From Arcobacter sp. CECT 8986 (GTDB taxonomy: Bacteria > Campylobacterota > Campylobacteria > Campylobacterales > Arcobacteraceae): 64,000 nt of DNA. Every line of letters begins with the position of its first letter. Position 1 is the stretch's first letter. The DNA lies in assembly GCF_004116725.1 (NCBI RefSeq), contig NZ_PDKG01000002.1, forward strand, positions 186,001 to 250,000. Direction: 5' to 3'. Position numbers and translations under genes: made by a program. The notes below the pieces were generated by a model. That model searched no databases, was not told the DNA's origin, and saw only the letters and a program-made list of their open reading frames with translations. Of this stretch, positions 1 to 62,240 are shown piece after piece.

Positions 1-521
1 GATTTGATTTAGTTCAAAAATATCCTACATATGAGGATCAGACAAATAACTTTAGAGTTGATGTAAAATTTAAATCTGAACAAATGGAACAAGATTGGTC
101 AAAAGAGTTCCCAACTATGTTGGTTACAATGAGACTTGTAAACTTAAGTGGTGCTGGTATGATTGAAAGAACAAGTAAATATCTTTCTCATATAACACCT
201 GATATGTTTGCAAATATTAATCCTGAGTTAGCAGCCAAATATGGACTAAGAGATGGTGATGATATGTGGTTACATTCACCTCAAGGTACAAAAATTAAGG
301 TAAAAGCTCAATACAGTAATAGAGTTACTCCTGATAGAATTGCTCTACCATATAACTTTGCAGGTGTTATGCAAGGTGTTGATATGAGTGCAAATTATCC
401 TGAAGGAACAAAGCCATATGCAATAGGTGAGAGTTCAAACACGATAACGAACTATGGATTTGATGTAATAACACAAATACCTGAATTTAATGCAGGTCTT
501 TGCAGAATAGAAAGAGCGTAG
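1..521 (+). CDS. fdhA: Formate dehydrogenase catalytic subunit FdhA, 3' end only (partial at window edge)
   Basis: This is the C-terminal 172 residues of a molybdo/tungsto-bis-MGD formate dehydrogenase large subunit; the first whole codon is at base 3. It covers the C-terminal molydopterin-dinucleotide-binding domain, which has conserved stretches such as GDDMWLHSPQGTKIKV and ends GLCRIERA. It is identical to the end of the complete fdhA at 5010-7850. FdhB starts 12 bases after the stop codon, so the gene heads an fdhABC operon whose start lies left of the window. Whether this copy also has an in-frame TGA cannot be seen. Confidence 0.95.
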   Translation, partial: FDLVQKYPTYEDQTNNFRVDVKFKSEQMEQDWSKEFPTMLVTMRLVNLSGAGMIERTSKYLSHITPDMFANINPELAAKYGLRDGDDMWLHSPQGTKIKVKAQYSNRVTPDRIALPYNFAGVMQGVDMSANYPEGTKPYAIGESSNTITNYGFDVITQIPEFNAGLCRIERA

Positions 522-532
522 GAGTAGGGATT

Positions 533-1135
533 ATGAGTGAAATGGCAAGAATGAAATTTTATTGCGATGAAGATAGATGTATAGAGTGCTTTGCTTGTAC
601 AGTAGGTTGTTCAGAAGCTCACGAATTACCAACAGGAATAAGTAGAAGAAAAGTAATAACATTAAACGAAGGGATAGAAGGGTTAGAATACTCATTATCA
701 ATAGCTTGTATGCATTGTACAGACGCACCATGCGAACAAGTATGTCCAGTAGATTGTTTCTATATCAGAGAAGATGGGATTGTTCTTCATGATAAAGAGA
801 AATGTATAGGATGTGGATATTGTCTATACGCTTGCCCTTTTGGAGCACCACAATTTCCAAGAGATGGAGCATTTGGAATAAAAGGAGCGATGGATAAATG
901 TACAATGTGTGCAGGAGGACCATTAGAAACAAATAGTGAACACGAAAGAGAACTATATGGACAAAATAGAATAGCAGAAGGTAAAGTACCAATGTGCGCA
1001 GCAGTTTGTTCAACAAATGCATTACTAGTAGGAGATTCACAAAAAGTTTCAGAGATATACAGACAAAGAGTTCTATCAAGAGGACATAAACATAATGAGT
1101 CTCCAGTAGCATGGAGTTCGGCATATAAATCATAA
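533..1135 (+). CDS. fdhB: Formate dehydrogenase iron-sulfur subunit FdhB (copy in left repeat)
   Basis: A 200-residue ferredoxin-type subunit that passes electrons from FdhA to the membrane cytochrome b. Four Cys groups for [4Fe-4S] clusters are visible: CIECFACTVGC, CMHCTDAPCEQVC, CIGCGYCLYAC and CTMC...CAAVC. The chosen ATG at 533 follows AGGAG with good spacing. A start further upstream at 500 would lie inside the end of fdhA and has no reason to be used. The gene is identical to 7862-8464. Isoleucine codons are almost all ATA, unlike the diverged fdhB at 13746. Confidence 0.95.
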   Translation: MSEMARMKFYCDEDRCIECFACTVGCSEAHELPTGISRRKVITLNEGIEGLEYSLSIACMHCTDAPCEQVCPVDCFYIREDGIVLHDKEKCIGCGYCLYACPFGAPQFPRDGAFGIKGAMDKCTMCAGGPLETNSEHERELYGQNRIAEGKVPMCAAVCSTNALLVGDSQKVSEIYRQRVLSRGHKHNESPVAWSSAYKS

Positions 1136-1148
1136 AGAAAGTGTTGAT

Positions 1149-2048
1149 ATGAGAATTAAATATATATTAGTTTTATTTCTAACACTAGCATCAGCAGCAA
1201 TAGCTGCAGATGCAACAAGTGCAATATTTGGAAAAGATTTAATACCAAATATCTTGGCATATGATAAAGAGGGAACTTTACATTTAGGAAAATGGTTTAC
1301 TTTGCTACAAAGTACATATTTTAAACCTATATTTTTAGGCGTATTAATAGGAGTACCAACAGTCTTTTTTATACACTATAAAATAATAGGACCAATGATA
1401 TTTTCACATGATAGAAAAAAGATATTTGTTTTTTCAGTATTTAATAGAATAATACATACAATAGCAGCAATAGCATTTATATTAATAGTACCAACAGGAT
1501 TTATAATCGTATTTGGAACAACATTTGGTGGAGGAGAATTAGTAAGAATAAGTAAAGATATTCATGCAATAGCAACAATATTATTTGTAATATCAGTAAT
1601 ACCAATGTTAATAATGTGGTTTAAGGATATGCTACCAACAAGTGATGATATAAAATGGATGATGATATTAGGAGGATATTTAAATAAAAGAAAAGACCCC
1701 ATCCCAGCAGGAAGATTTAATGCAGGACAAAAGATGTGGTTTTATGTATGTACCTTCGGAGGGATAGTAATGATTCTAACAGGTGCAATAATGTTTTTCC
1801 AAGATTTTAAAATAGAATTCATAATATCATTAGGAATATCACAAATAGATTTATTAAGAGGAAGCGCAATAGTGCATAATGTATTAGGAATGGCAGTAGC
1901 AGCACTATTTATGACCCACGTATATATGTCAGTATTTGCAATAAAAGGAGCAATACATAGTATAATAACAGGATATAAAGAGGAAGAAGAAGTAGAGATT
2001 CTACATAGTACTTTTTATAAAAAGTTAAAAAATGACAATAAAATCTAA
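1149..2048 (+). CDS. fdhC: Formate dehydrogenase cytochrome b subunit FdhC (copy in left repeat)
   Basis: A 299-residue membrane protein with an N-terminal signal-like segment (residues 1-20, ending AAIAAD) and about four further membrane helices. It belongs to the cytochrome b556 subunit family, which anchors periplasmic FDH and reduces quinone. Candidate haem ligands include His in FNRIIH, DIHA, IVHNV and THVYM. The gene is identical to 8478-9377. The terminator that follows the other copy at 9387-9416 is missing here, because the repeat ends just after the stop codon. Transcription may therefore run on toward the polyferredoxin. Confidence 0.93.
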   Translation: MRIKYILVLFLTLASAAIAADATSAIFGKDLIPNILAYDKEGTLHLGKWFTLLQSTYFKPIFLGVLIGVPTVFFIHYKIIGPMIFSHDRKKIFVFSVFNRIIHTIAAIAFILIVPTGFIIVFGTTFGGGELVRISKDIHAIATILFVISVIPMLIMWFKDMLPTSDDIKWMMILGGYLNKRKDPIPAGRFNAGQKMWFYVCTFGGIVMILTGAIMFFQDFKIEFIISLGISQIDLLRGSAIVHNVLGMAVAALFMTHVYMSVFAIKGAIHSIITGYKEEEEVEILHSTFYKKLKNDNKI

Positions 2049-2153
2049 AATAGGTATTGATAATTTTTTTATGAGTAGTAAAGAAATATTAAAAGATTGG
2101 TAAAGAAATCTTTAACTATTAAGTGTAAGTTAAGATTTTAAGGAATAAAATTA

Positions 2154-5009: not shown

Positions 5010-7850
5010 ATGGGTAAAAATATACTCAATGAGATGTCTTTGAAACTAGGAAGAAGAAATTTTCTAAAACTTGCTTCAATCGGTGCAGGGATTGGTGCAA
5101 CATCAATGTTTGCATCAACAAAAAGTGTAAGAGAAGCAACAGAAGAAGAGATAAGAAATCCTTTTCCAGGGTCAAAGAAAGTAAAAACAATATGTAGTAT
5201 ATGCTCAGCAGGATGCGGAGTAGTAGCAGAAGTACAAAATGGAGTATGGGTAAGACAAGATGTGGCACAAGACCATCCAATAAGTGAAGGTAGTCACTGT
5301 TGTAAAGGTATAGATCAAATAGATTTAGTAAAAAGTAAACAAAGAGTAAAACACCCATTAAAAAAAGTAGATGGGAAATGGCAAAGAATCTCATGGAAAC
5401 AAGCCATAGAAGAGATATCAGAGAAGATGCTAAAATTAAGAGCAGAGAATGGACCAGATGTAGCGATGTTCTTAGGCTCAGCAAAATTTAATCTACAACA
5501 AGCTTTTTATTTTAGAAAGTTTGCAGCAATGTGGGGAACAAACAATATAGATCACGTAGCTAGAATCTGACATAGTGCAACAGTTGCCGGTGTGGCAAAT
5601 ACATGGGGTTATGGCGCTATGACAAATCACTTTGGTGATGTTGTTGGAAACTCAAAAGCTATATTAATGATTGGAGCAAATTCAGCTGTAGCAAATCCAA
5701 TTGGATTTAAACATTTTCTTCAAGCAAAAGATAGAAATAATGCTAAATTAATTGTAGTTGACCCAGTTTATACAAAATCTGCAGCAAAAGCAGACCACTA
5801 CTTAAGAATTAGAACAGGAACAGATGTTGCTTTTATATATGGATTATTACATCTAATATTTAAAAACGGTTGGGAAGATAAAGAATTTATTGACAGTCGT
5901 GTTTATGGAATGGATGAAGTAAGACAAGAAGCAAAAAAATGGACACCAGAAGTAACAGCTGATGTTACAGGAATTCCTGCTGAAAAAATTATTCAGCTTG
6001 CAACTTTGCTAGCTAAAACAAAACCAACTACTGTCGTTTGGGCTTTAGGTATTACTCAACATAGTACAGGAACATCAAATACTAGAATTCTTCCAATACT
6101 TCAATTAGTATTAGGAAATATGGGTAAAAAAGGTGGAGGATGTAATATTATTAGAGGACATGATAATGTTCAAGGTTCTACTGATATGTGTTGTCTTTCT
6201 GATAGTTTACCAGGGTATTATGGTTTAAGTGAAGCTTCATGGAAATATTACTCAAAAGCATGGGGTGTTGATTATAAATGGTTACAAAATAGATTTCATT
6301 CTCCTAAATGGATGAACGAAAAAGGATTTTCACTAGCAAAATGGTGGCAAGGTGTTTTACAAGAGGAAAAAACTTACTCTTCAAGTCCAATTAGAGCTTT
6401 ATGGGTTCAAGGTACTGGTATCACATCAATGGCACAAACTGCTAAAGTAAAAGAGGCTTTAGACAAATTAGACCTTTTAGTAGTAGCAGAACCATTTGTA
6501 AATGAAGCTGCTGTAATTACAAATAAAACAGACAATATTTACGTACTTCCTGTTTGTACACAATTTGAAACAGAAGGAAGTGTAACAGCAACAAATAGAT
6601 CTTCACAATGGAGAAGTAAAGTTGTAGATCCATTATATGAAAGTAAAGAAGATCATCAAGTGATGTTTGAATTTGCTAAAAAATTTGGTTTTTATGATGA
6701 ATATGTAAAAGCAATGAAAATGGATATCGTGGACAATGAAATAAAAGTTGTAAAAGATGACTTTATATGGCCAGATGATGCAGCAAATGAATTAGCAAGA
6801 ACAGTAAAAACAATTGGTCTTGGTGGTTGGACTGTAAATAGATTAAGAGAGCATCAAGAAAATTGGCATCTATTTGATCCTATTACTTTAGAAGGTAGAG
6901 GAAAAATGAAAGGTCAATATTATGGATTGCCTTGGCCTAGTTGGGATAAAAAACACCCAGGAAGTCCAATACTTTATGATGTTGATACTCCTATGTTAAA
7001 AGGTGGTATGGGATTTAGAAATAGATTTGGACTTGAACACGATGGAATTAGTCAATTACCTGATGAAAGAGTAAGTGTAAAAGATTCAAAAGTAAAAGGT
7101 GGATATCCAGAAATCACAAAAGATAATATTGAAGAAGTATTAAATATTAAATTAACTGAAGATGAAAAAAGAAAAATGGGTGCAAACTGGAAAGTTGATT
7201 TAAGTGGAATCATCCAAGAAAAATGTAATGCTGCTGGAGTATGCGTTTATGGTAATGCAAAAGCAAGAGCAAAAGTATGGACATTCCCAGACCCAATTCC
7301 AAAACATAGAGAACCAATTCACTCACCAAGATTTGATTTAGTTCAAAAATATCCTACATATGAGGATCAGACAAATAACTTTAGAGTTGATGTAAAATTT
7401 AAATCTGAACAAATGGAACAAGATTGGTCAAAAGAGTTCCCAACTATGTTGGTTACAATGAGACTTGTAAACTTAAGTGGTGCTGGTATGATTGAAAGAA
7501 CAAGTAAATATCTTTCTCATATAACACCTGATATGTTTGCAAATATTAATCCTGAGTTAGCAGCCAAATATGGACTAAGAGATGGTGATGATATGTGGTT
7601 ACATTCACCTCAAGGTACAAAAATTAAGGTAAAAGCTCAATACAGTAATAGAGTTACTCCTGATAGAATTGCTCTACCATATAACTTTGCAGGTGTTATG
7701 CAAGGTGTTGATATGAGTGCAAATTATCCTGAAGGAACAAAGCCATATGCAATAGGTGAGAGTTCAAACACGATAACGAACTATGGATTTGATGTAATAA
7801 CACAAATACCTGAATTTAATGCAGGTCTTTGCAGAATAGAAAGAGCGTAG
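5010..7850 (+). CDS. fdhA: Selenocysteine formate dehydrogenase catalytic subunit FdhA1 (TGA at 5568-5570 read as Sec)
   Basis: A 946-residue periplasmic formate dehydrogenase that oxidises formate to CO2 at a bis-MGD Mo or W centre. A Tat signal (GRRNFLK, residues 11-17) leads into a [4Fe-4S] motif (CSICSAGC...CCKG). An in-frame TGA at codon 187 falls at ARI-U-HSATVAG, the exact place of the catalytic Sec-His in FDH. The reading frame is open on both sides and a SECIS-like structure follows at 5571-5621. Calling two separate genes here would be wrong. The part before the TGA is rich in ATA Ile codons and the part after it prefers ATT, which suggests a mosaic. TupABC downstream makes tungsten a plausible metal. 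Confidence 0.96.
5571..5621 (+). promoter_or_regulatory. SECIS-like element of fdhA1
   Basis: Directly after TGA 5568-5570, CATAGTGC (5571-5578) pairs with GCGCTATG (5614-5621), 8 bp with one G-T. Above it, TTGCC (5584-5588) pairs with GGCAA (5594-5598) under a GGTGT loop. A G-rich apical loop about 18 bases past UGA fits bacterial SelB-binding elements. The block 5558-5623 is identical in the second fdhA. Confidence 0.85.
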
Positions 7851-7861
7851 GAGTAGGGATT

Positions 7862-8464
7862 ATGAGTGAAATGGCAAGAATGAAATTTTATTGCGATGAA
7901 GATAGATGTATAGAGTGCTTTGCTTGTACAGTAGGTTGTTCAGAAGCTCACGAATTACCAACAGGAATAAGTAGAAGAAAAGTAATAACATTAAACGAAG
8001 GGATAGAAGGGTTAGAATACTCATTATCAATAGCTTGTATGCATTGTACAGACGCACCATGCGAACAAGTATGTCCAGTAGATTGTTTCTATATCAGAGA
8101 AGATGGGATTGTTCTTCATGATAAAGAGAAATGTATAGGATGTGGATATTGTCTATACGCTTGCCCTTTTGGAGCACCACAATTTCCAAGAGATGGAGCA
8201 TTTGGAATAAAAGGAGCGATGGATAAATGTACAATGTGTGCAGGAGGACCATTAGAAACAAATAGTGAACACGAAAGAGAACTATATGGACAAAATAGAA
8301 TAGCAGAAGGTAAAGTACCAATGTGCGCAGCAGTTTGTTCAACAAATGCATTACTAGTAGGAGATTCACAAAAAGTTTCAGAGATATACAGACAAAGAGT
8401 TCTATCAAGAGGACATAAACATAATGAGTCTCCAGTAGCATGGAGTTCGGCATATAAATCATAA
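7862..8464 (+). CDS. fdhB: Formate dehydrogenase iron-sulfur subunit FdhB1
   Basis: A 200-residue four-cluster ferredoxin subunit, identical to 533-1135. Cluster motifs are CIECFACTVGC, CMHCTDAPCEQVC, CIGCGYCLYAC and CTMC...CAAVC. The ATG at 7862 has AGGAG upstream and sits 11 bases after the fdhA stop. It likely travels to the periplasm as a complex with Tat-exported FdhA, since it has no signal of its own. Ile codons are nearly all ATA. Confidence 0.95.
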   Translation: MSEMARMKFYCDEDRCIECFACTVGCSEAHELPTGISRRKVITLNEGIEGLEYSLSIACMHCTDAPCEQVCPVDCFYIREDGIVLHDKEKCIGCGYCLYACPFGAPQFPRDGAFGIKGAMDKCTMCAGGPLETNSEHERELYGQNRIAEGKVPMCAAVCSTNALLVGDSQKVSEIYRQRVLSRGHKHNESPVAWSSAYKS

Positions 8465-8477
8465 AGAAAGTGTTGAT

Positions 8478-9377
8478 ATGAGAATTAAATATATATTAGT
8501 TTTATTTCTAACACTAGCATCAGCAGCAATAGCTGCAGATGCAACAAGTGCAATATTTGGAAAAGATTTAATACCAAATATCTTGGCATATGATAAAGAG
8601 GGAACTTTACATTTAGGAAAATGGTTTACTTTGCTACAAAGTACATATTTTAAACCTATATTTTTAGGCGTATTAATAGGAGTACCAACAGTCTTTTTTA
8701 TACACTATAAAATAATAGGACCAATGATATTTTCACATGATAGAAAAAAGATATTTGTTTTTTCAGTATTTAATAGAATAATACATACAATAGCAGCAAT
8801 AGCATTTATATTAATAGTACCAACAGGATTTATAATCGTATTTGGAACAACATTTGGTGGAGGAGAATTAGTAAGAATAAGTAAAGATATTCATGCAATA
8901 GCAACAATATTATTTGTAATATCAGTAATACCAATGTTAATAATGTGGTTTAAGGATATGCTACCAACAAGTGATGATATAAAATGGATGATGATATTAG
9001 GAGGATATTTAAATAAAAGAAAAGACCCCATCCCAGCAGGAAGATTTAATGCAGGACAAAAGATGTGGTTTTATGTATGTACCTTCGGAGGGATAGTAAT
9101 GATTCTAACAGGTGCAATAATGTTTTTCCAAGATTTTAAAATAGAATTCATAATATCATTAGGAATATCACAAATAGATTTATTAAGAGGAAGCGCAATA
9201 GTGCATAATGTATTAGGAATGGCAGTAGCAGCACTATTTATGACCCACGTATATATGTCAGTATTTGCAATAAAAGGAGCAATACATAGTATAATAACAG
9301 GATATAAAGAGGAAGAAGAAGTAGAGATTCTACATAGTACTTTTTATAAAAAGTTAAAAAATGACAATAAAATCTAA
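8478..9377 (+). CDS. fdhC: Formate dehydrogenase cytochrome b subunit FdhC1
   Basis: A 299-residue membrane anchor, identical to 1149-2048. It has a signal-like N-terminus and about four later helices (near 57-77, 100-122, 140-157, 203-222, 245-262). Compared with FdhC2 it reads FNRIIH where FdhC2 reads FHRFIHW, so one of the two His in that helix is absent. A strong terminator follows at 9387, closing the operon tatS-fdhABC. Confidence 0.93.
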   Translation: MRIKYILVLFLTLASAAIAADATSAIFGKDLIPNILAYDKEGTLHLGKWFTLLQSTYFKPIFLGVLIGVPTVFFIHYKIIGPMIFSHDRKKIFVFSVFNRIIHTIAAIAFILIVPTGFIIVFGTTFGGGELVRISKDIHAIATILFVISVIPMLIMWFKDMLPTSDDIKWMMILGGYLNKRKDPIPAGRFNAGQKMWFYVCTFGGIVMILTGAIMFFQDFKIEFIISLGISQIDLLRGSAIVHNVLGMAVAALFMTHVYMSVFAIKGAIHSIITGYKEEEEVEILHSTFYKKLKNDNKI

Positions 9378-9386
9378 AAATTCATA

Positions 9387-10904: not shown

Positions 10905-13736
10905 ATGTCTAATAGTACATATGATGCACTAAAAGCAAAAGTAGGTAGAAGATCATTTATTAAAATGGCTGCTGTGGCTACTGCTTCTGGTGCGATAAGC
11001 GCTTTTGCAAATACTAATGATGGTGTTACTAGAGAAGCAACAAGTGAAGAGATTAAAAATCCTTTTCCTGGTTCTAAAAAAGTAAAAACTATCTGTACAG
11101 CATGTTCTGTTGGTTGTGGTATTATTGCAGAAGTACATAACGGAGTTTGGGTAAGACAAGAAGTTGCACAAGATCATCCAGTTTCACTTGGAGGACATTG
11201 TTGTAAAGGTGCTGATATGATCGATATGGTTAGATCAGAAGTAAGACTTAAACATCCAATGGTTAAAGAAAAAGGTCAATGGAAAAGAATTTCTTGGGAT
11301 GATGCATACGATAGAATCTCTAAGAAACTTAAAGATTTAAGAGAGAAAGAAAGTCCAGACGCGACTATGTTTTTAGGCTCAGCAAAAATGAGTACAGAGC
11401 AAGCATATTATTTTAGAAAATTTGCTGCAATGTATGGAACTAATAACATAGATCACCAAGCTAGAATCTGACATAGTGCAACAGTTGCCGGTGTGGCAAA
11501 TACATGGGGTTATGGCGCTATGACTAACTCTTTAGGTGATATACAAAATGCGAAGTCTATAATTATTTTTGGTGCGAATCCTGCTGTGAATCACCCAGTT
11601 GGTTTTGGACATTTTCTTAAAGCAAAAGAGAGAAATAATGCAAAAATAATAGTAATAGACCCAATTTTTACTAAAACAGCTGCAAAAGCTGATTACTTTT
11701 GTCAAATTAGACCAGGAACAGATATTCCATTTATGTATGGGATGTTAAATATTATATTTAAAAATGGTTGGCATGATGATAATTTCATAGATGATAGAGT
11801 TTATGGAATGGATTTAATTAAAGAAGAAGCAAAAAAATGGACTCCTGAAAAAGTTGCAGACATTACAGGTGTACCAGCTGATAAATTAATTCAAATTACA
11901 ACAGTTTATGCTAAAAATTCTCCAGGTACATTAATTTGGGCAATGGGTTTAACTCAGCATACAATCGGAAGTTCAAATACAAGAATGGCTCCAATCGTAC
12001 AATTAGCTCTTGGAAATATGGGTAGAGCAGGTGGTGGAACTAATATCTTAAGAGGGCACGACAATGTTCAAGGTGCTACAGATATGTGTTGTTTATCACA
12101 TACATTACCAGGTTATTATGGATTAGCTGATGGTTCATGGAAATATTTTGCACAACAATGGAAAGTTGATTATAATTGGTTAAAAGGTCAATTCCAAGCT
12201 CCTGAGTGGATGAATAAAAAAGGATTCACACTTGCTAGATGGTGGGCTGGAGTATTAAATGGAAAAGACGGAAATGATAAATCACACAATGGTAAAACAA
12301 GCCTAAAAGCACTTTTTGTAATGGGTAATGGAGTTACATCTGTTGCACAACAAGCAAAAATAAAAGAAGGTTTAGACAACTTAGAATTATTAGTTTTATC
12401 TGACCCATTTGTAAATGAAGCTGCAATCTTAACTGATAAACAAGATGATGTATTTATCTTACCAGCAGCAACTCAATTTGAAACAAGTGGTTCTGTAACA
12501 GCAACTAATAGATCTGTTCAATGGAGAACACAAGTAGTTGAGCCATTATATGAATCAAAACCAGATCAAGAAGTTCTATTTGAATTAGCAAAAAGATTAG
12601 GTTTTTATGACCAATATGTTTCTGCTATGAAAGATGAAAAAGGTAACTTCTCTTGGCCAGAAGATGCAACAAGAGAAATTGCAAGAACAATTAAAACTAT
12701 TGGTTTAACAGGTTGGACACCAGAAAGATTGAAAAAACATACTGAAAATTGGCATATGTTTGATCAAGTAACTCTAAGAGGTTATGGTGAAATGAAAGGT
12801 GAATATTATGGATTGCCTTGGCCTTGTTGGACAGAAAAACATGGAGGAAGCCCACTTCTTTATAACACTAATTTAAGTGTAAAAGATGGAGGTATGGGAT
12901 TCAGAAATAGATTTGGATTAGAGCATGATGGTGTTTCTCAATTAGCGGGAACTGGTAGTGCACCAAAAGATTCAAAAGTAAATGGTGGATATCCTGAAAT
13001 TACAAGAGATAATATCGAAGCAGTTTTAGGAATTAAATTAACTGAAGATGAAAAAAGAAGAATTGGTAAAAACTGGAAAGTTGATACTTCAAATATTATT
13101 GCTGAAAAATGTATGGAAGCAGGTGTTGCACCTTATGGAAATGCAAGAGCAAGAGCAAATGTTTGGGAATTCCCAGATAAAATACCAATGCACAGAGAGC
13201 CATTACACTCTCCAAGATTTGATTTAGTTAAAAAATATCCAACATTTGAGAATAAACCAGACCATTATAGAGTTGACACACAATACATGAGTAAACAATC
13301 TGAAAAAGATTGGTCAAAAGAGTTCCCAATTAACTTGGTAACTGGAAGACTTGTAAACTTAAATGGTGCAGGTATGGAGAACAGAGCTTCTAAATATTTA
13401 GCAGCATTAACTCCTGAAATGTTCTGTGATATTAATCCAGAATTAGCAGGAAAATTAGGCGTAAGAGATGGCGATATGATATGGATTCATTCACCTGAAG
13501 GAACAAAAATTAAAGTTAAAGCAAAATATTCATATGCAGTTAGCCCAGACAGAGTTTGGCTACCATTCCATTTTGCTGGACATTTCCAAGGTGAAGATAT
13601 GACTCATAAATATCCTAAAGGAACTAAACCTTATGCGGTTGGTGAAAGTGCAAATACTGTTACAAACTACGGTTATGACATTATTACACAAATACCAGAA
13701 ACAAAAGGTGGATTATGCCGAGTAGAAAGAGCGTAG
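10905..13736 (+). CDS. fdhA: Selenocysteine formate dehydrogenase catalytic subunit FdhA2 (TGA at 11469-11471 read as Sec)
   Basis: A 943-residue Tat-exported FDH large subunit (GRRSFIK at 14-20) with a [4Fe-4S] motif (CTACSVGC...CCKG). The in-frame TGA is codon 189, in ARI-U-HSATVAG. The frame continues to 13736 without interruption. It differs from FdhA1 throughout, including an extra KDGNDKSHNG-type insertion near residue 455, and lacks the MDIVDNEIKVVKDD insertion seen in FdhA1. A SECIS-like structure identical to that of fdhA1 follows the TGA. It is the centre of operon torD-tatS-fdhABC. Confidence 0.96.
11472..11522 (+). promoter_or_regulatory. SECIS-like element of fdhA2
   Basis: Same two-part hairpin as 5571-5621: an outer 8-bp stem right after TGA (11472-11479 with 11515-11522), and an inner 5-bp stem (11485-11489 with 11495-11499) with a GGTGT loop. 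The 66-base block 11459-11524 is identical to 5558-5623 although the flanks differ, even at silent positions. Confidence 0.85.
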
Positions 13737-15317: not shown

Positions 15318-15338
15318 AATATGCAAAAAAAACATATT
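15318..15338. promoter_or_regulatory. ModE-like box 4 (AATATGC-N7-ACATATT)
   Basis: 13 of 14 arm positions match, with the standard 7-base spacer. It covers the upstream candidate ATG at 15321, which argues that the true fdhD start is further on, at 15354. Confidence 0.6.
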
Positions 15339-15353
15339 ATAAAGAAGTTGGGA

Positions 15354-16142
15354 ATGGGAAACGATAAATATTTAAAAAAAGTAATAATAGAAAAAGTTTC
15401 AGGCGATGAATCAGTAGAGTTTGAAGATGTAACAATTGAAGAAGCAAGATTAAATCTCTATTTAAATGGTCAAAAAGCAATTTCTATGATGTGTATACCA
15501 ATTGATCAAGATGCACATGCAATTGGGTTTTTAATGAGTGAAAATGTTATATCAAGTGTAGATGATATAAAAGAGTTTTATATTAGTGAAGATGGTTTAA
15601 GAGTTGATATTACTGCAAGAATCAATGAAGAATCATTAGAAAATCTTTATAAAGAGAAGACTTTAGTAAGTGGTTGTGGTGGTGGAGTAACTGGAAATGT
15701 TGAAGGAAATGTTGAAGTTCCTTTTAATCAAATAGCATTTCAAGTAAAACCAGAAACAATATCAACTGAAGTAAAAAAGTTTTATGAAGAGAGTGAACTA
15801 TATAAATTAACAGGTTGTGTTCATAAAGCAATGATATATTTGCAAGATGGTACAACTGTAACATCAGAAGATATCGGAAGACATAATGCAATTGATAAAG
15901 TTGTAGGTAAGTGTAAAATAAAAGGTCTTGATACTTCTAAAGCTGTTTTATTTGTAAGTGGTAGATTATCATCAGAAATGGTAACAAAAGCAGTAATGCA
16001 CCGAATTCCTATTGTAGTTTCAAGAACAGCACCAACATATCTTGGAGTTCAAACAGCACATAAACATGGTGTTACATTAATAGGTTTTGCTAGAGGCAAA
16101 CGAATGAATATATATACTCATCAAGGAAGAATCGATGTCTAG
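15354..16142 (+). CDS. fdhD: Formate dehydrogenase accessory sulfurtransferase FdhD
   Basis: A 262-residue FdhD family protein, which moves sulfur from a cysteine desulfurase to the Mo/W cofactor of FDH. Family motifs seen are GCGGGVTG, TGCVHKA, EDIGRHNAIDKVVG and GFARGKRMNIYTH. An earlier in-frame ATG at 15321 lies inside the operator and lacks a Shine-Dalgarno, while ATG 15354 follows AAGAAG, so I prefer the latter. The Cys pair of E. coli FdhD (CxxC) is reduced here to a single Cys in SGCGGG. The stop overlaps the next gene by 8 bases. Confidence 0.92.
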   Translation: MGNDKYLKKVIIEKVSGDESVEFEDVTIEEARLNLYLNGQKAISMMCIPIDQDAHAIGFLMSENVISSVDDIKEFYISEDGLRVDITARINEESLENLYKEKTLVSGCGGGVTGNVEGNVEVPFNQIAFQVKPETISTEVKKFYEESELYKLTGCVHKAMIYLQDGTTVTSEDIGRHNAIDKVVGKCKIKGLDTSKAVLFVSGRLSSEMVTKAVMHRIPIVVSRTAPTYLGVQTAHKHGVTLIGFARGKRMNIYTHQGRIDV

Positions 16143-16560
16143 TATTGATGATAATGAAAAAATAGAACTTGATAATATTCAAAAAGAGTTAATTTTGACT
16201 AATTTAGATGCAGATGGTAAACTATCTTGTATTAAAGCTTTTAAAGTTGCAAGATTAATAGGTAAACATCCAAAAGAGATGTCTGCTATTACTAAAAGTT
16301 TAGGTATCAAAATTACAAATTGTGAATTAGGTGTTTTTGGAAAATTAAATTTTCATGACCCACATATATCAGTTTATAATAGATTACAACAAAATTATAT
16401 GGGCAACAAAGAATTAGAGTGTAAAGTGTTATGGGATGAGGCACAAAACTCTACTTTAAAAATGGTTGGTTCAACAGTAAAAAATTCAGATATAGAAGTT
16501 ACTCATTGTCAATTAGGATGTTTTAGGGAAAGGAAAGGCAAAAATGAAGGTAAAAGTTAA
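16135..16560 (+). CDS. Small Cys-motif protein of unknown function in the FdhD-ModE operon
   Basis: A 141-residue soluble protein I cannot name. Its N-terminal half has LTNLDADGKLSCIKAFKVA, then a helix-turn-helix-like KHPKEMSAITKSLGIKI and the motif TNCELGVFGKL. The C-terminal half repeats the idea with THCQLGCFRE near the end, so CxLGxF occurs twice. A shorter paralogue lies at 61009-61356. It overlaps fdhD at its start and modE at its end (17 bases), so it is part of the cofactor operon. Metal or sulfur binding, or DNA binding, are possible; none is shown. Confidence 0.75.
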   Translation: MSSIDDNEKIELDNIQKELILTNLDADGKLSCIKAFKVARLIGKHPKEMSAITKSLGIKITNCELGVFGKLNFHDPHISVYNRLQQNYMGNKELECKVLWDEAQNSTLKMVGSTVKNSDIEVTHCQLGCFRERKGKNEGKS

Positions 16561-16915
16561 AATTTGGATTGAAGATGACGAACAAAATTTAATATTTGGA
16601 AGTGGTAAAACTGAAGTTTTAGAAAATATAGATAGAACTGGTTCTATTGCAGAAGCTGCAAAAGAAGTGGGAATGAACTATAAAAAAGCTTGGAGTCACA
16701 TCAAAGTATTAGAGAAGTTTATTGAAGAAGATTTAGTAATGACTTTTAAAGGTAGAGGAGAAAATAGTGGAACTAGTTTAACTCCAAAAGCTAGAGAAGT
16801 TATTCAAACTTATAAAATTTTAGAGCATGATATAAAAAAATATGCAGAAAATAGATTTAAAGAGTTATTTCACAAAAATGGAGAAGAGATTCTTAATCCA
16901 AAGGAAGATAAGTAA
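16544..16915 (+). CDS. modE: ModE-type molybdate/tungstate regulator, DNA-binding domain only
   Basis: A 123-residue winged-helix protein of the ModE N-terminal/LysR-like type: GSIAEAAKEVGMNYKKAWSHI is the recognition region (about 33-53), followed by the wing GRGENSGTSLTPKARE. E. coli ModE is about 260 residues with two C-terminal Mop domains that bind molybdate; here they are absent. One-domain ModE proteins are known in campylobacteria. It sits amid six candidate operators and is the obvious candidate to bind them. Its stop overlaps the next ATG by one base. Confidence 0.88.
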   Translation: MKVKVKIWIEDDEQNLIFGSGKTEVLENIDRTGSIAEAAKEVGMNYKKAWSHIKVLEKFIEEDLVMTFKGRGENSGTSLTPKAREVIQTYKILEHDIKKYAENRFKELFHKNGEEILNPKEDK

Positions 16916-17895
16916 TGTATAAATTAAATTTTTTACTATATCCTAATGTGCAAAATTTTCATATTATGAATGATTATTCACTAAGTATTTTAGATAATAA
17001 TGAACCTTTTAATTCTTTAAAAAAAGAGTTTCTAAAAAAATATAATTTTAATGAACTAAAAACTATTGAGTTTAATAAGTTTGGAATATTAGGCTTAATG
17101 CTTGAGTTAAATGGAAAATTTGCTGTAAGTAAAGGTGAAAGTCAATCAATAATTGAGGGTGCAAAAAGATATGAAGAATTAGGTTTTGAAGTTTTATGGT
17201 TAGATTTAAATAAAGATGGAAGCGTAAATCTTGAAGTTTTAGAAAAAAATGAGATTGATTTTATCTTTATTTCTTCATATGTAATGGATACTTTTGTAAA
17301 AACAGATTTACAAAAAGTAAAAAGTTTAACTTCTGCAAAAGTTATATCAAATGCAAGTGCAAATTTTGATAAAAATTGTGATATTGCAATTTTTGATTGT
17401 TATAAACTTAGTGGATATACAAGTAATGCTATTGTTTTACATAATAATGAATTTGAAGAACAAAATCTTGCTAATATTGATGCTTTAAGTGTTTATTTGT
17501 GTTATGAATCTTTAAAAAATCAAACTTTTAATAGTTCAAATAAAAAACTATTTTTAGATAAATTAAAAGAGCAGTTTAAAGATGATATTTACTTTTTTGT
17601 AGAGCCAAGTTCTACTTTAGATTACTCTTTGCATTTTGCATTAAAAAATATTAAAGCAAGGGAACTTATAAGAACTTCTGCTTTATCTAATATTCTTATT
17701 ACAAATGGTGAGGGTTGTTCTTTAGGTTTATCAAAACCTTCAAGAATAATCCAAGAGATGCAATATGATGAAACAACAAGTAGAAATGCCATATCTTTAT
17801 CATTTTGTGAAGAGTATAATAAAGAACAAATAGAAAAAATTGTAGAACTATTACATAAAAAATATAGACAAATAAGGGTTCTAAATGAGCAATAA
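16915..17895 (+). CDS. NifS/IscS-like aminotransferase class V protein, shortened
   Basis: A 326-residue fold-type I PLP protein resembling cysteine desulfurases, which are usually near 390-400 residues. A likely Schiff-base Lys lies in FDCYKLSGYTSNAIVL (family SGHK region), and a catalytic-loop Cys in GEGCSLGLSKPSRII (family CSSGS...PSHVL), followed by the usual SLSFCEEYNKEQI C-terminus. The N-terminal PLP-binding part is short and divergent. FdhD needs a desulfurase as sulfur donor, so a dedicated partner is a reasonable inference. GGAAG precedes the ATG. ModE-like box 5 lies inside codons 11-17. Confidence 0.7.
   Translation: MYKLNFLLYPNVQNFHIMNDYSLSILDNNEPFNSLKKEFLKKYNFNELKTIEFNKFGILGLMLELNGKFAVSKGESQSIIEGAKRYEELGFEVLWLDLNKDGSVNLEVLEKNEIDFIFISSYVMDTFVKTDLQKVKSLTSAKVISNASANFDKNCDIAIFDCYKLSGYTSNAIVLHNNEFEEQNLANIDALSVYLCYESLKNQTFNSSNKKLFLDKLKEQFKDDIYFFVEPSSTLDYSLHFALKNIKARELIRTSALSNILITNGEGCSLGLSKPSRIIQEMQYDETTSRNAISLSFCEEYNKEQIEKIVELLHKKYRQIRVLNEQ
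16945..16965. promoter_or_regulatory. ModE-like box 5 inside the NifS-like gene (AATGTGC-N7-TCATATT)
   Basis: 12 of 14 arm positions match box 2, with the same spacer. It lies within the first 17 codons of the NifS-like gene. It may be an intragenic operator or mark a second start at ATG 16965, although no Shine-Dalgarno precedes that. Confidence 0.45.
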
Positions 17896-19132
17896 ATTAA
17901 CATATTTAGATTTTGAAGAAGCAGTAAGTAAAAGTTTAGAGTTAGCAACATCTACAACATTAACACAAAAAGTTTCATTATTAGATTCTTTGGGAAAAGT
18001 TCTAGCTCAAGATGTTATTTGTATAAAAAATTTACCATCATTTAATAACTCTGCAATGGACGGTTTTGCTATAAAATTTGAAGATGCAGGTAAAACTTTA
18101 AATATAAAAAGAGTTATTTATGCAGGTGATAAAGAAGATAAAGTAAAAGCTGATTTAAATGAGAATGAGTGCTATAAAATAATGACAGGAGCACAAGTTC
18201 CAAGTGATGCTGATACTATTATTCCTATTGAAAACTGCCTTGATGTTACAAACCAAAGCGTTACAATTCCATCTGAAATTAAAAAAGGAAGTAACCTAAG
18301 ATTAAAAGGTGAAGAGCAAACAAAAGGAAATGTTTTACTTAAAAAAGGTGAAACAATTACTTCTTCAACTATTACACTTTTAGCTTCTCAAGGAGTTGTA
18401 ATGGTTGAAGTATTTAAAGATATTTCAATTGCTGTTTTATCAACTGGTGATGAGTTAAAAGAGCCTTGGGAAAACTCAACTGAAGATGAAATATATAATT
18501 GTAACTCTTATGCTTTAGTATCACTTTTAAAAGAGAATGGATTCAATGCAACATATAGTGGAGTTATACCTGATGATTTAGAAAAATCAAAAGAGTTTAT
18601 TTCAAATTTGAAAAATTATGATGTTGTTATTACAAGTGGTGGTATTTCTATGGGTGATGCTGATTTTATGGCTCAAGCATTTTTATCAAATGGATTGCAA
18701 ACTGCTTTTCATGGTGTAAATATTAAACCAGGTCGTCCAATAATGATGGGAAAAATGCAAAAAACATTTGTGATTTCTTTACCTGGAAACCCACTAACAG
18801 CAATGGTAAATGCACATCTTTTTGTACTTCCTGTACTTAAGAAAATTCAAGGTAATAGTGGTTTTTACCATGATATTGAAAAAGTAGAGAATAAAAAAGA
18901 GTTTAAAACAAAACAAGGAAGAGTAAATGTGGTACTTGGATCTTGTGAAAATGGAGGTTTTATAGTTACAAGAGATAATAAATATGGTTCAGGAATGATA
19001 ACTGCTTTATATGAAAGTAACGCTTTATTAGTAACAAATGAAGCTACAAGTAGCATAAAACAGAATCAAGAAGTAGGTGTTATTAGATTTAATAACAAAT
19101 TTTTAACAAAACAAGTAAATATTTTAAACTAA
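17885..19132 (+). CDS. moeA: Molybdopterin molybdenumtransferase MoeA
   Basis: A 415-residue MoeA, which inserts molybdate (or tungstate) into adenylylated molybdopterin. Hallmarks are PSFNNSAMDGFAIK at about 51-64, MTGAQVP, the STGDEL region, TSGGISMGDADF and LPGNPLTAMV. The length is normal. It overlaps the NifS-like gene by 11 bases and is followed 15 bases later by tupA, tying cofactor insertion to metal uptake. Confidence 0.94.
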   Translation: MSNKLTYLDFEEAVSKSLELATSTTLTQKVSLLDSLGKVLAQDVICIKNLPSFNNSAMDGFAIKFEDAGKTLNIKRVIYAGDKEDKVKADLNENECYKIMTGAQVPSDADTIIPIENCLDVTNQSVTIPSEIKKGSNLRLKGEEQTKGNVLLKKGETITSSTITLLASQGVVMVEVFKDISIAVLSTGDELKEPWENSTEDEIYNCNSYALVSLLKENGFNATYSGVIPDDLEKSKEFISNLKNYDVVITSGGISMGDADFMAQAFLSNGLQTAFHGVNIKPGRPIMMGKMQKTFVISLPGNPLTAMVNAHLFVLPVLKKIQGNSGFYHDIEKVENKKEFKTKQGRVNVVLGSCENGGFIVTRDNKYGSGMITALYESNALLVTNEATSSIKQNQEVGVIRFNNKFLTKQVNILN

Positions 19133-19147
19133 AAAAAAGGAAAATAT

Positions 19148-19963
19148 ATGAAAAAAATTTTATTATCAACAGTATTAGCAGCAGCAGTTGCTACAACTTC
19201 TTTAATGGCAAAAGATTTAATGATGGCTACAACTACAAGTACTGATAATACTGGACTTTTAGATTATTTAGCACCAAAATTCCAAAAAGATACTGGAACT
19301 ACTTTAAAATGGGTTGCAACAGGAACTGGTAAAGCTCTTAAAATGGGAAGCAATTGTGATGTTGATATTCTTTTTGTTCATGCACCAGCAAGTGAGAAAA
19401 AGTTTGTAAATACAGGTTATGGAGTTGATAGAAGACAAGTTATGTATAATGACTTTGTTATTATTGGACCAAAACAAGATCCAGCTCATGTAACAGGACT
19501 TGCTCCAAGTAAAGCATTAGAAAAAATTAAAGAAAATAAATCTAATTTCTTTAGTAGAGGTGATAACTCAGGAACTAACAAAAAAGAGATTAGTTTATGG
19601 AAAAAAGCTATGGCTAAAGCACCAGAAAAAGCTGCATGGTATGTTCAAACTGGTCAAGGTATGTTAAGAACTATTAATATGGCTGCTGAAAAAAATGGAT
19701 ATACTATGACAGATAGAGGAACTTGGATTAAATATCAATCACAAAAAGGTGATAAAAACCCAATGAAAATCGTAGTTGAAGGTGATAAATCATTATTTAA
19801 TCAATATAGTGTAATTACAATAAATCAAGAAAAATGTTCAAAAGTTCAACCAAAATTAGCTAAACAATTCTCTGATTGGATTGTAAAAGATTCAACTCAA
19901 AAAGTAATTGCTGATTTTAGATTATTAGGAAAAGCATTATTTATTCCAAATGCAAATAAATAA
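19148..19963 (+). CDS. tupA: Tungstate ABC transporter substrate-binding protein TupA
   Basis: A 271-residue periplasmic binding protein with a Sec signal (residues 1-21, ending SLMAKD). The start of the mature part, TTTSTDNTGLLDYLAPKF, is the TupA signature, followed by FSRGDNSGTNKKE and QTGQGMLRTI. TupA selects tungstate over molybdate, which fits tungsten-type FDH. AAGG precedes the ATG. It is the first gene of tupABC at the end of the fdhD operon. Confidence 0.94.
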   Translation: MKKILLSTVLAAAVATTSLMAKDLMMATTTSTDNTGLLDYLAPKFQKDTGTTLKWVATGTGKALKMGSNCDVDILFVHAPASEKKFVNTGYGVDRRQVMYNDFVIIGPKQDPAHVTGLAPSKALEKIKENKSNFFSRGDNSGTNKKEISLWKKAMAKAPEKAAWYVQTGQGMLRTINMAAEKNGYTMTDRGTWIKYQSQKGDKNPMKIVVEGDKSLFNQYSVITINQEKCSKVQPKLAKQFSDWIVKDSTQKVIADFRLLGKALFIPNANK

Positions 19964-19991
19964 TTAGTTTTAAATTAAGGATAACTACAAA

Positions 19992-20684
19992 ATGAGTCTA
20001 TTTATTGATGGTTTTAATGAAGCTTTACAACTTTTAGCTTCTGGAAATGACAGTGTTTATTCTGCAATTGCAGTAACAATTACTGTTTCATCTTGGTCTT
20101 TATTAATTAGCTTATTAATAGGATTACCTTTAGGCTTTTTGCTAGGATATTATAATTTTCCTAGCAAACCTGTAGTTAGAACTATTGTTGATACTTTACT
20201 TGCTTTACCAACTGTTGTAATTGGGCTTATTGCATATACAATGCTATCAAGAAGTGGATTTTTCGGTTCATTTGATTTACTATTTAGTCAAAAAGCAATT
20301 ATTATTGGTCAAATTGTTTTAGGAACACCAATTGTAATAGCATTAACAGCAACTCAAGTTGAATCTATTGATAAAAGATTATATCTATCTTTAAAAGGAT
20401 TAGGTGCAAATAAATGGCAAATATTACTAACAACTTTAGTTGAAGCTAGATTTGGACTTATGACAGCAGCAATGACTGCTTATGGAAGAATAGTAACTGA
20501 AATTGGTATTTCTATGATGGTTGGTGGAAACATCAAATATCATACAAGAACTATCACAACTGCCATAGCACTAGAAACAGGAAAAGGTGAGTTTGTAACT
20601 GGAATTGCTTTAGGGTTAGTTCTTTTTATAATAGCATTGATGGTTAATATTATTTTATCTGTGTTAAAAAGGAAATGGGTATAA
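19992..20684 (+). CDS. tupB: Tungstate ABC transporter permease TupB
   Basis: A 230-residue inner-membrane permease with five to six hydrophobic segments. The EAA-type cytoplasmic loop is visible as LSLKGLGANKWQILLTTLVEARFG. It belongs to the TupB/ModB-like permease family. It starts 28 bases after tupA and its TAA overlaps the tupC ATG by one base (TAATG). Confidence 0.93.
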   Translation: MSLFIDGFNEALQLLASGNDSVYSAIAVTITVSSWSLLISLLIGLPLGFLLGYYNFPSKPVVRTIVDTLLALPTVVIGLIAYTMLSRSGFFGSFDLLFSQKAIIIGQIVLGTPIVIALTATQVESIDKRLYLSLKGLGANKWQILLTTLVEARFGLMTAAMTAYGRIVTEIGISMMVGGNIKYHTRTITTAIALETGKGEFVTGIALGLVLFIIALMVNIILSVLKRKWV

Positions 20685-21691
20685 TGAATCATCTTTATGA
20701 ACTACAAAATATCACATATTATCATGATGATAAAAAAGTTTTGAATATAGATAAACTAATACTAGATGAAAAGCAAATTATTGGAGTGTTTGGTCCTAAT
20801 GGAAGTGGAAAATCTACTCTTTTTTCTTTATTATCTTTTATTTCAAAACCAAATGGTGGAAATATATATTTTCAAGGAAAAGATAGTAAAAAGTTAGAAC
20901 ATAAAAATAAACAAGATGTAGTAATATTACCTCAAAATCCATATTTACTAAAAAAAAGTGTTTATGAAAATATTATATATGGACTAAAATTAAGAAAAGA
21001 TACAAATAATTTAGATGATAGAGTTGATGAAGCTTTAAGTCAAGTTGGATTATCAAACTCTTTTAAAAATAGAAAATATAATCAACTATCAGGTGGAGAA
21101 GCACAAAGAGTTGCACTTGCTGCTAGACTTATTTTAAAGCCTAAAGTTCTTATTTTAGATGAGCCAACATCAGGAGTTGATACAAACTCTGCACAGCTAA
21201 TAAAAGAAGCTATATTTTTAGCAAAACAAAAGTGGGATACAACACTTATTATCTCAAGCCATGACCATAATTGGCTAAACCATACTTGTGATAAAAAAAT
21301 AGCATTATTTCAAGGTAATTTAGTAGAAAGTGGATGTATTAATCTTATCTTTCCTCCTTGGCAAAAAGATGAAAATGCAAACTTAGTAAAAGAGTTTATT
21401 GATAATCAAAAGTTAATTTTTGAAAATAGTAGTTCAAAGAAAAAAGATTCTATTGTTATGATAAATGCAAAAGATATATCAATAAATTGTAATGATGAAA
21501 AAAACTGTTTAAATGCAGTAATTTCTTCAATTTATAAAGACCCTTTAGAAGATAAAATGCAAGTTGAGTTTGTAATTGGTGGAATAACTTTTAATATCAA
21601 ATTATCAAAAGATGAAATAAAAAATAACGAACTATTCCCAGGTAGTGAAATAAAAGTTAAAATTGATACATCAAAAGTTTGCTGGATATAA
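20684..21691 (+). CDS. tupC: Tungstate ABC transporter ATP-binding protein TupC with C-terminal TOBE/Mop-like domain
   Basis: A 335-residue ATPase: Walker A GPNGSGKST (about 35-43), signature LSGGEAQRVALAARL, Walker B VLILDEPTSGVD, and the switch His in SSHDHNW. Residues 265-335 look like a TOBE/Mop domain (NAVISSIYKDPLEDKMQVEF), which in relatives binds the oxyanion. ATG 20684 is preferred because it couples to the tupB stop. An in-frame ATG three codons earlier (20675) sits too close to the Shine-Dalgarno. Confidence 0.92.
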   Translation: MNHLYELQNITYYHDDKKVLNIDKLILDEKQIIGVFGPNGSGKSTLFSLLSFISKPNGGNIYFQGKDSKKLEHKNKQDVVILPQNPYLLKKSVYENIIYGLKLRKDTNNLDDRVDEALSQVGLSNSFKNRKYNQLSGGEAQRVALAARLILKPKVLILDEPTSGVDTNSAQLIKEAIFLAKQKWDTTLIISSHDHNWLNHTCDKKIALFQGNLVESGCINLIFPPWQKDENANLVKEFIDNQKLIFENSSSKKKDSIVMINAKDISINCNDEKNCLNAVISSIYKDPLEDKMQVEFVIGGITFNIKLSKDEIKNNELFPGSEIKVKIDTSKVCWI

Positions 21692-60180: not shown

Positions 60181-60810
60181 CTACAAAAGTTCTTTTAAAT
60201 CTTCAAATTTATTTATAAAATGTTTTGCTTTGTCAAAATTGTGAGATTTTGTAAACTCATTTTTTACAATAATACAATCAATATTAGCTCTAAATGCAGA
60301 ATCTAAACCTCTTTGACTATCTTCAACTACAACTGCTTCACTAGGTTTTGCATTGAATTTTTTTAGTCCAGCTAAGTATGGGTCTGGATATGGTTTCGCT
60401 CTTTCATAATCTTCAACACACAATACAAACTCCATAAAATCAACTATTCCTCTATTTTTATGGATTAACTCAAAATCAACTCTTCGTGCAGTTGTTATTA
60501 TTCCCATCTTATATTTTTTACTTAACTCTTTTAGTGTATTTTTGACACCGTTTATTTCAATGTCTTTTGTTTGTAAAAAGTGTTGATATAGTTCATCTCT
60601 TTTCTCTCTTAACTTATCAACTTCTTCTATACTATAACCTTTATTTAAAGCAAGTTCCCAAGCTGTTCCACCTCTTATCATAATCTTTTGATAAACATCA
60701 AATTCTAAATCTATATTTATAGTTTTTAATATGTCTTTATTTGCTTGGTAATACCATAACTCAGTTTCAACTAAAACACCGTCATTATCAAATAGTATAT
60801 ATTTTTTCAT
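60181..60810 (-). CDS. HAD-superfamily phosphatase (beta-phosphoglucomutase-like)
   Basis: A 209-residue HAD hydrolase: motif I FDNDGVLVETE (Asp nucleophile about residue 8), motif II MGIITTARR (Thr), Lys in YERAKPYPDP and motif IV VVEDSQRGLDSA. The cap domain (about 15-85) is helical, of the C1 type. Substrates in this subfamily are sugar phosphates or phosphoglycolate; the specific one is unknown. Confidence 0.87.
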   Translation of the reverse strand: MKKYILFDNDGVLVETELWYYQANKDILKTINIDLEFDVYQKIMIRGGTAWELALNKGYSIEEVDKLREKRDELYQHFLQTKDIEINGVKNTLKELSKKYKMGIITTARRVDFELIHKNRGIVDFMEFVLCVEDYERAKPYPDPYLAGLKKFNAKPSEAVVVEDSQRGLDSAFRANIDCIIVKNEFTKSHNFDKAKHFINKFEDLKELL

Positions 60811-60858
60811 TATTATTAGCTCTTATTTATTAATTTATTAAGTTAATTTATATCAAGT

Positions 60859-60887
60859 ATTAACTTTACAAATAATTTAAAGTTAAT
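60859..60887. repeat. Inverted repeat ATTAACTTTA-N9-TAAAGTTAAT
   Basis: A perfect 10-bp inverted repeat in the 198-base gap before the HAD gene and after the small Cys-protein gene. Its AACTTTA/TAAAGTT halves also occur in the inverted repeat at 4617-4658. In so AT-rich a gap the likeness may be chance. Confidence 0.4.
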
Positions 60888-61008
60888 TGTATTTATTAGA
60901 ATTAAAAAAATGTTTTATTTTATTTATGATTTTTTTTGCAGCAGAAATTATTTTATAACTATTTCAAGTTATATGTTAAATAGAAAAAATATGTTTTAAA
61001 TAGCTATA

Positions 61009-61356
61009 TTAGAAACAATCTGTTTTGCAAACAATAGGGCTTAGATTTGCTGTATGAATTGTCATGTCTTTTTCCAAAGCTTTTTTCAAAGAGAAGTTTC
61101 CATTTTCTTCTTTATCTATATTTTTAATAAGAGCATTATAAATATCATCATTTATATCTAAAAATGATAATTTATTTGAAACATCAAGTTCACAATTTGT
61201 GATAGTTATGTTCATATTCTTTATTATTTCTTGCATATCTTTAGGGTTCATTCCTATAAGTTTTGCAACTCTAAAAGCTTTCAAACAAGATAATTTTCCA
61301 TCTTCGTCTAAATTTGTCATTAATAATTCAGTTTGAATATTATCTAATCTCTTCAT
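61009..61356 (-). CDS. Paralogue of the small Cys-motif protein of the FdhD operon
   Basis: A 115-residue protein sharing its N-terminal half with 16135-16560: LLMTNLDEDGKLSCLKAFRVAKLIGMNPKDM and ITNCELDV compared with LILTNLDADGKLSCIKAFKVARLIG and ITNCELGV. The C-terminal half is different and ends SPIVCKTDCF. No FDH gene is nearby. It shows the family is not restricted to the fdh operon. The function is unknown. Confidence 0.72.
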   Translation of the reverse strand: MKRLDNIQTELLMTNLDEDGKLSCLKAFRVAKLIGMNPKDMQEIIKNMNITITNCELDVSNKLSFLDINDDIYNALIKNIDKEENGNFSLKKALEKDMTIHTANLSPIVCKTDCF

Positions 61357-61668
61357 TATTTAATCCTTAGTAATTATGAATAATCATTCACCTAATTATA
61401 TACAAAAAAGTATTATTTTTTATATATTTTTATTATTTTTGATAAAAATTATTAAAAATGTTTACTTTCTTAACATTCCTATAATTTTTAAAATTAATAT
61501 TCTTATTTTTGTTAAAATAAAAGGAGAAGAAAAGATTCTTCTCCAAAAAAGACATTTTTTTATTTAACAAGGAGAGAATATACTAAAAAATAATAGTATA
61601 TGTGAGATTTAATTATATAAGTTAATAGTTAATAGAATTATAACGGGATATTAATATTTTATTAATAT
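61357..61668. other. 312-base noncoding gap
   Basis: It contains a terminator for the LOG-family gene (61523-61544), an 8-bp inverted repeat ATATACTA/TAGTATAT (61578-61601), and a GGAGAG run at 61571 with no good start after it. A 63-codon plus-strand frame at 61376 is rich in Ile and Lys and looks random. Confidence 0.55.
61523..61544 (-). terminator. Terminator downstream of the LOG-family gene
   Basis: A perfect 9-bp stem GGAGAAGAA/TTCTTCTCC with AAGA loop; on the minus strand it is followed by TTTTATTTTAAC. It lies about 125 bases past the stop. Confidence 0.7.
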
Positions 61669-62229: not shown

Positions 62230-62240
62230 TTTTTGTCCTT

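What the first reader, a model, noticed from the sequence alone, without database searches (positions are those of the whole stretch)
16135..16560. Undescribed small Cys protein fused by overlap into the FdhD-ModE operon, with a second copy at 61 kb
The 141-residue protein overlaps both neighbours and carries CxLGxF twice (CELGVF, CQLGCF). A 115-residue paralogue at 61009-61356 shares LTNLDxDGKLSCxKAFxVA and ITNCEL. Position suggests a role in sulfur or metal handling for the FDH cofactor, perhaps as a carrier between the NifS-like protein and FdhD. The paralogue outside the operon argues for a wider family.
Basis: partly seen in the sequence, partly recalled or inferred. Interest (0 to 1): 0.7.

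Follow-up and report, generated by a model that had tools for sequence, protein, structure and literature searches.

The report
Split-off cysteine half of ModE regulator
The small cysteine protein beside the formate dehydrogenase genes is the detached front half of a known Campylobacter regulator (ModE), and some relatives keep it without the DNA-binding half, which may explain why Campylobacter jejuni needs ModE to make active formate dehydrogenase.

Summary
The ORF is real and conserved. It is not an isolated novelty: it is the N-terminal half of the Campylobacterota ModE protein (C. jejuni Cj1507c type), encoded as a separate gene in Arcobacteraceae. In Campylobacter and other families the two halves are one ~245-aa protein. 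The half is two tandem copies of one module, each with two invariant cysteines (C32/C63 and C96/C125 in all 57 aligned sequences). No Pfam or NCBIfam model covers it. AlphaFold predicts two HTH/winged-helix-like units. It lies directly behind fdhD in all 89 fetched loci that hold both genes. It occurs with its own-type ModE HTH in 106 of 111 genomes. Several Arcobacteraceae keep it between fdhD and the NifS-like gene without that HTH, and there its tree conflicts with the FdhD tree. Published work (PMC11237541) shows that deleting C. jejuni modE abolishes FDH activity, beyond its known repressor role. The specific claim of a carrier from the NifS-like protein to FdhD is not: the domain also occurs without either one. 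Best reading: a cysteine-based partner/sensor domain of a Mo/W-FDH regulator, probably with a second, HTH-independent role in FDH maturation. The cysteine chemistry is unknown.

The parts
16135..16560 (+). Small cysteine protein X (141 aa): free-standing N-terminal half of the Campylobacterota ModE protein
   Evidence: invariant C32, C63, C96, C125 in 57 sequences
16174..16356 (+). Module 1 of X (residues 14-74): C32...C63-ELGVFG
   Evidence: module 1 vs 2 hhalign prob 98, E 1.8e-13; secondary structure
16366..16533 (+). Module 2 of X (about residues 78-133): C96...C125-QLGCF
16544..16915 (+). ModE-type winged HTH protein (123 aa), homologous to the C-terminal half of the fused ModE; no mop domain
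   Evidence: TIGR00637, E 1.3e-21, below the curated cut-off
15321..16142 (+). FdhD, FDH accessory sulfurtransferase
   Evidence: PF02634 E 1.5e-78; NF001943 over cut-off
16915..17895 (+). NifS/IscS-like protein, truncated; PLP Lys and catalytic Cys kept, PLP-site Asp and His lost
   Evidence: E ~1e-9; 45 relatives
17885..19132 (+). MoeA-like molybdenum cofactor gene, downstream in the same direction
   Evidence: ORF; assignment by inspection of the translation; neighbourhood
19148..21691 (+). TupA, TupB, TupC tungstate uptake genes
   Evidence: ORFs; assignment by inspection of the translation; neighbourhood
10905..13736 (+). FdhA read through an in-frame TGA (probable selenocysteine: ...DHQARI-U-HSATVAGV...)
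61009..61356 (-). Paralogue of X (115 aa), outside the FDH locus between HAD-like and LOG-like genes; lost C96, G66, F68, G69 and G128 of the family invariants

Best explanation
X is the partner/sensor half of the Campylobacterota ModE regulator, encoded as its own protein in Arcobacteraceae. Shown: homology and gene-fusion relation to the N-terminal half of Cj1507c-type ModE; two tandem modules with four invariant cysteines; fixed position behind fdhD. Inferred: X and the 123-aa HTH protein, made from overlapping genes, form a complex that does the job of the fused ModE at Mo/W uptake and FDH genes, with the cysteine pairs (metal, cluster or persulfide) in place of the molybdate-binding mop domains of E. 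coli ModE. Inferred with lower confidence: X also acts on FDH maturation directly, since it persists in FDH operons that have no HTH gene.
For: Fused in non-Arcobacteraceae, split and overlapping in Arcobacteraceae, with the same junction. Published Cj1507c primers match the fused gene of genome G102 exactly, 200 bp apart, the forward one inside the X-coding part, so Cj1507c carries X. X co-occurs with the own-type HTH in 106 of 111 genomes. Taveirne 2009, as cited in PMC7011364: C. jejuni ModE represses modABC and the tungstate transporter genes, lacks a metal-binding domain and has a protein-protein binding site instead. Deleting modE abolishes FDH activity and complementation restores it (PMC11237541). 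Tandem module. Invariant Cys. Predicted HTH-like modules, pLDDT mostly above 90.
Against: No experiment shows that X binds the HTH protein, a metal or sulfur. The overlap suggests co-translation at most. X without its HTH (G122, G203, G290 and the operons of L003, L004, L005, L008, L010) and HTH without X (G166, G167, G190, G147, G215, G222, G258, G279) show that each half can exist alone. The tool releases no model coordinates, so the cysteine geometry was not measured.
Confidence: 0.6

Rival explanations
1. X is first of all an FDH maturation factor (sulfur, metal or cofactor handling through its four cysteines). The ModE HTH is an added regulatory half, and the regulator role is secondary.
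For: In Arcobacter caeni and relatives, and in G122 and G290, X sits between fdhD and the NifS-like gene without the own-type HTH; for G122, G203 and G290 the whole genome was searched and the only full ModE is the ordinary 260-278 aa kind. All four Cys stay invariant in these. The X tree conflicts with the FdhD tree: FdhD of these operons is one clade (100/100), X of the same operons being one clade is rejected at p-AU 0.02, and FdhD rejects the X grouping at p 3e-7. So X was paired with a second FDH operon type without the HTH. In C. jejuni, loss of ModE abolishes FDH.
Against: 57 of 150 FdhD-bearing genomes lack X, so FDH can be matured without it. Most X carriers have the HTH. Lost FDH activity could also be loss of activation of fdh genes.
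Confidence: 0.35
2. X is a sulfur carrier between the NifS-like protein and FdhD.
For: Gene order fdhD-X-NifS-like in HTH-less operons; invariant cysteines.
Against: X without the NifS-like gene in Campylobacter and others. X without FdhD in about 17 Campylobacter-group genomes, five of them checked at E up to 10. FdhD next to the NifS-like gene without X in G030, G106, G237, G296, G133, G254. No match to rhodanese, TusA or other carriers in Pfam.
Confidence: 0.08
3. X is itself a DNA-binding protein (tandem HTH modules) that works without a separate HTH partner.
For: Predicted three-helix modules; weak best fold matches are tandem homeodomains (DUX4, Foldseek E 0.3-0.9, VIA Z up to 3.7).
Against: Matches are far below significance. 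Net charge is near neutral (21 K+R against 19 D+E), unusual for a DNA binder.
Confidence: 0.1

Closest known systems
Campylobacter jejuni ModE-like protein Cj1507c
   Same: Its N-terminal half is homologous to X and its C-terminal half to the downstream 123-aa HTH protein; both lie behind fdhD.
   Different: One fused chain there, two overlapping genes here. In some Arcobacteraceae the HTH half is missing altogether.
Escherichia coli ModE (PDB 1b9m, 1o7l)
   Same: The HTH half matches in sequence (TIGR00637) and fold (Foldseek E 2e-6).
   Different: E. coli ModE carries C-terminal mop domains that bind molybdate. X lies on the N-terminal side, has no TOBE/mop match and has four invariant cysteines.
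FdhD / IscS sulfur pathway to formate dehydrogenase
   Same: Same operon, cysteine-bearing, and the fused homologue is needed for FDH activity (PMC11237541).
   Different: No sequence relation to FdhD or IscS. X is not obligatory for FDH in the phylum.

Membership tests
ModE regulator | ModE-type winged HTH (TIGR00637) | tested here: met
   In the partner gene (E 1.3e-21) and in 30 of 30 fused homologues, but below the curated 98.5-bit cut-off in the scores shown; absent from X itself
ModE regulator | C-terminal mop/TOBE molybdate-binding domains | tested here: not met
   No TOBE/mop hit in X or in the partner HTH protein; literature says C. jejuni ModE lacks a metal-binding domain
Campylobacterota X-ModE (Cj1507c type) | Homology to the N-terminal half with CxLGxF twice and four invariant Cys | tested here: met
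Campylobacterota X-ModE (Cj1507c type) | Mo/W-dependent repression of uptake genes | not testable with these tools
   Reported for Cj1507c (Taveirne 2009, cited in PMC7011364); not tested for the split form
FdhD family | PF02634 match | tested here: not met
   No hit for X
Sulfur carrier proteins (rhodanese, TusA and the like) | Sequence match to a carrier family | tested here: not met
Sulfur carrier proteins (rhodanese, TusA and the like) | Persulfide formation on cysteine | not testable with these tools
   needs protein chemistry
Homeodomain/HTH fold | Significant structural match | tested here: inconclusive
   Foldseek best E 0.3; VIA Z up to 3.7

The most novel reading that the evidence does not exclude
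X is a previously unrecognised, HTH-independent formate dehydrogenase maturation factor with two cysteine-pair modules. It is fused into ModE in most Campylobacterota and was joined to a second FDH operon type without ModE, so that ModE of C. jejuni is a regulator and a maturation factor in one chain.
Probability: 0.33. Interest if true: 0.75.

Novelty: new variant of a known kind. Interest (0 to 1): 0.5.

Why it matters
C. jejuni ModE has a front half with no assigned family, and its loss abolishes formate dehydrogenase activity for reasons its repressor role does not explain (PMC11237541). Arcobacteraceae have separated the two halves naturally, and some lineages keep only the front half beside FDH. 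The two roles can therefore be taken apart by single-gene deletions in non-pathogenic strains.

Tried and rejected
Pfam, NCBIfam, PHROGs and PDB sequence searches gave nothing consistent for X. Selenocysteine versus cysteine in FdhA does not separate X-bearing from X-lacking operons. Viral contigs: no relative. Plasmids: none. Viral structure library: no significant fold match. A claim that X is limited to Campylobacterales is therefore not made. I recall similar 'CQLGxFG' proteins in other phyla, but this is memory and untested. Taveirne 2009 itself is not held. Cysteine-cysteine distances in the model could not be measured because no coordinates are released.

Full report
What is there. The ORF at 16135-16560 (+) encodes 141 residues and overlaps fdhD by 8 bp and a 123-aa ModE-type HTH gene by 17 bp. 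The order is FDH subunits, fdhD, X, ModE HTH, a NifS-like gene, moeA-like, tupA, tupB, tupC. The paralogue at 61009-61356 is on the minus strand, 46% identical. It has lost several family invariants (C96, G66, F68, G69, G128), while its counterparts at the same locus in L052 and L054, and the outside-FDH copy in L016, keep them.

What it is. No Pfam, NCBIfam, PHROG or PDB sequence family covers X. A search of 298 Campylobacterota genomes found relatives in 111. In Arcobacteraceae X is a free ORF. In Campylobacter and four other families the same sequence is the N-terminal half of one protein of about 240-265 aa whose C-terminal half is the ModE HTH. The junction '...CxLGCFxEKKGKKM-VKTKTWIEN...' in fused proteins corresponds to the X end and HTH start in the split pair. 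Published primers for C. jejuni Cj1507c (PMC7011364) match the fused gene of genome G102 exactly and 200 bp apart. The studied ModE of C. jejuni therefore contains X.

Anatomy. X is a tandem repeat of one module (hhalign of the two halves: probability 98, E 1.8e-13). Each module has two cysteines that are invariant in 57 sequences: C32 and C63, C96 and C125, with L/G/F around the second (CxLGxF). C129 is not invariant. AlphaFold2 gives a confident model (pLDDT mostly above 90 in the modules) with helix, short strand, helix, helix, strand in each module, which I read as an HTH or winged-helix unit. The cysteines sit at the start of the second helix and just after the last strand. Fold searches found no significant match; the best, weak ones are tandem homeodomains. 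For the fused protein only the HTH half matches E. coli ModE.

Context. X follows fdhD on the same strand in all 89 fetched loci that hold both, within -25 to 80 bp; some of these loci are overlapping fetches of the same genome. X co-occurs with its own-type HTH in 106 of 111 genomes and with FdhD in 93 of 111. The halves are separable both ways. X without the HTH: Arcobacter caeni, Aliarcobacter MAGs, G122, G203, G290; in the three genomes searched whole the only full-length ModE is an ordinary 260-278 aa one. HTH without X: G166, G167 and G190 beside fdhD, and G147, G215, G222, G258, G279. About 17 Campylobacter-group genomes have X-ModE but no FdhD; in the operons examined an FdhA with an in-frame TGA is still next to it.

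A history that separates X from the HTH. The HTH-less X operons carry a different FDH type, whose FdhD forms one clade (support 100/100). X from the same operons does not follow: being one clade is rejected at p-AU 0.02, and the FdhD data reject the X grouping at p 3e-7. Relatives with this FDH type but without X have fdhD directly beside the NifS-like gene. X was therefore joined to that operon type without its HTH, and its four cysteines stayed invariant there. This argues for a function that does not need the HTH. It does not say which.

Literature. C. jejuni ModE represses the molybdate and tungstate transporter genes, and is said to lack a metal-binding domain and to have a protein-protein binding site instead (PMC7011364 citing Taveirne 2009). 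Deleting it abolishes FDH activity; complementation restores it; the authors infer a function in FDH biogenesis beyond repression (PMC11237541). X is the obvious candidate for that function, but I found no experiment that separates the halves.

Mechanism. Most likely, X and the HTH protein form the split equivalent of the fused regulator, with the four cysteines as the site that reads metal, sulfur or cofactor state. A second, direct role in FDH maturation is plausible.

Limits. The wider phyla were not searched with a profile, the cysteine geometry was not measured, and the chemical role is unknown.

Noticed in passing
window 1-2050 and 7330-9379: Two stretches of 2050 bp, 100% identical, covering the end of an FdhA and FdhB/FdhC; a very recent FDH duplication or an assembly repeat.
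   Followed up: partly
window 16915-17895: The NifS-like protein lacks the IscS PLP-site Asp180 and His104 in 45 relatives but keeps Lys206 and catalytic Cys328 (E. coli IscS reference written from memory).
   Followed up: partly
L124, L125, L084, L085: Campylobacter-group genomes with an FdhA bearing an in-frame TGA and X-ModE but no FdhD anywhere: how FDH is sulfurated there is open.
   Followed up: partly
L110, L111, L107: Some genomes of family f2 have fdhD followed by the ModE HTH alone, without X.
   Followed up: no
window 60181-63995: The paralogue of X lies in a locus (RND-like, LOG-like, X paralogue, HAD-like) conserved in G000, G207, G241, G272 and G291; no link to FDH is evident.
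   Followed up: no
window 5010-7850 and 10905-13736: Two FDH catalytic genes interrupted by a stop at the selenocysteine position (TGA confirmed for the second).
   Followed up: partly
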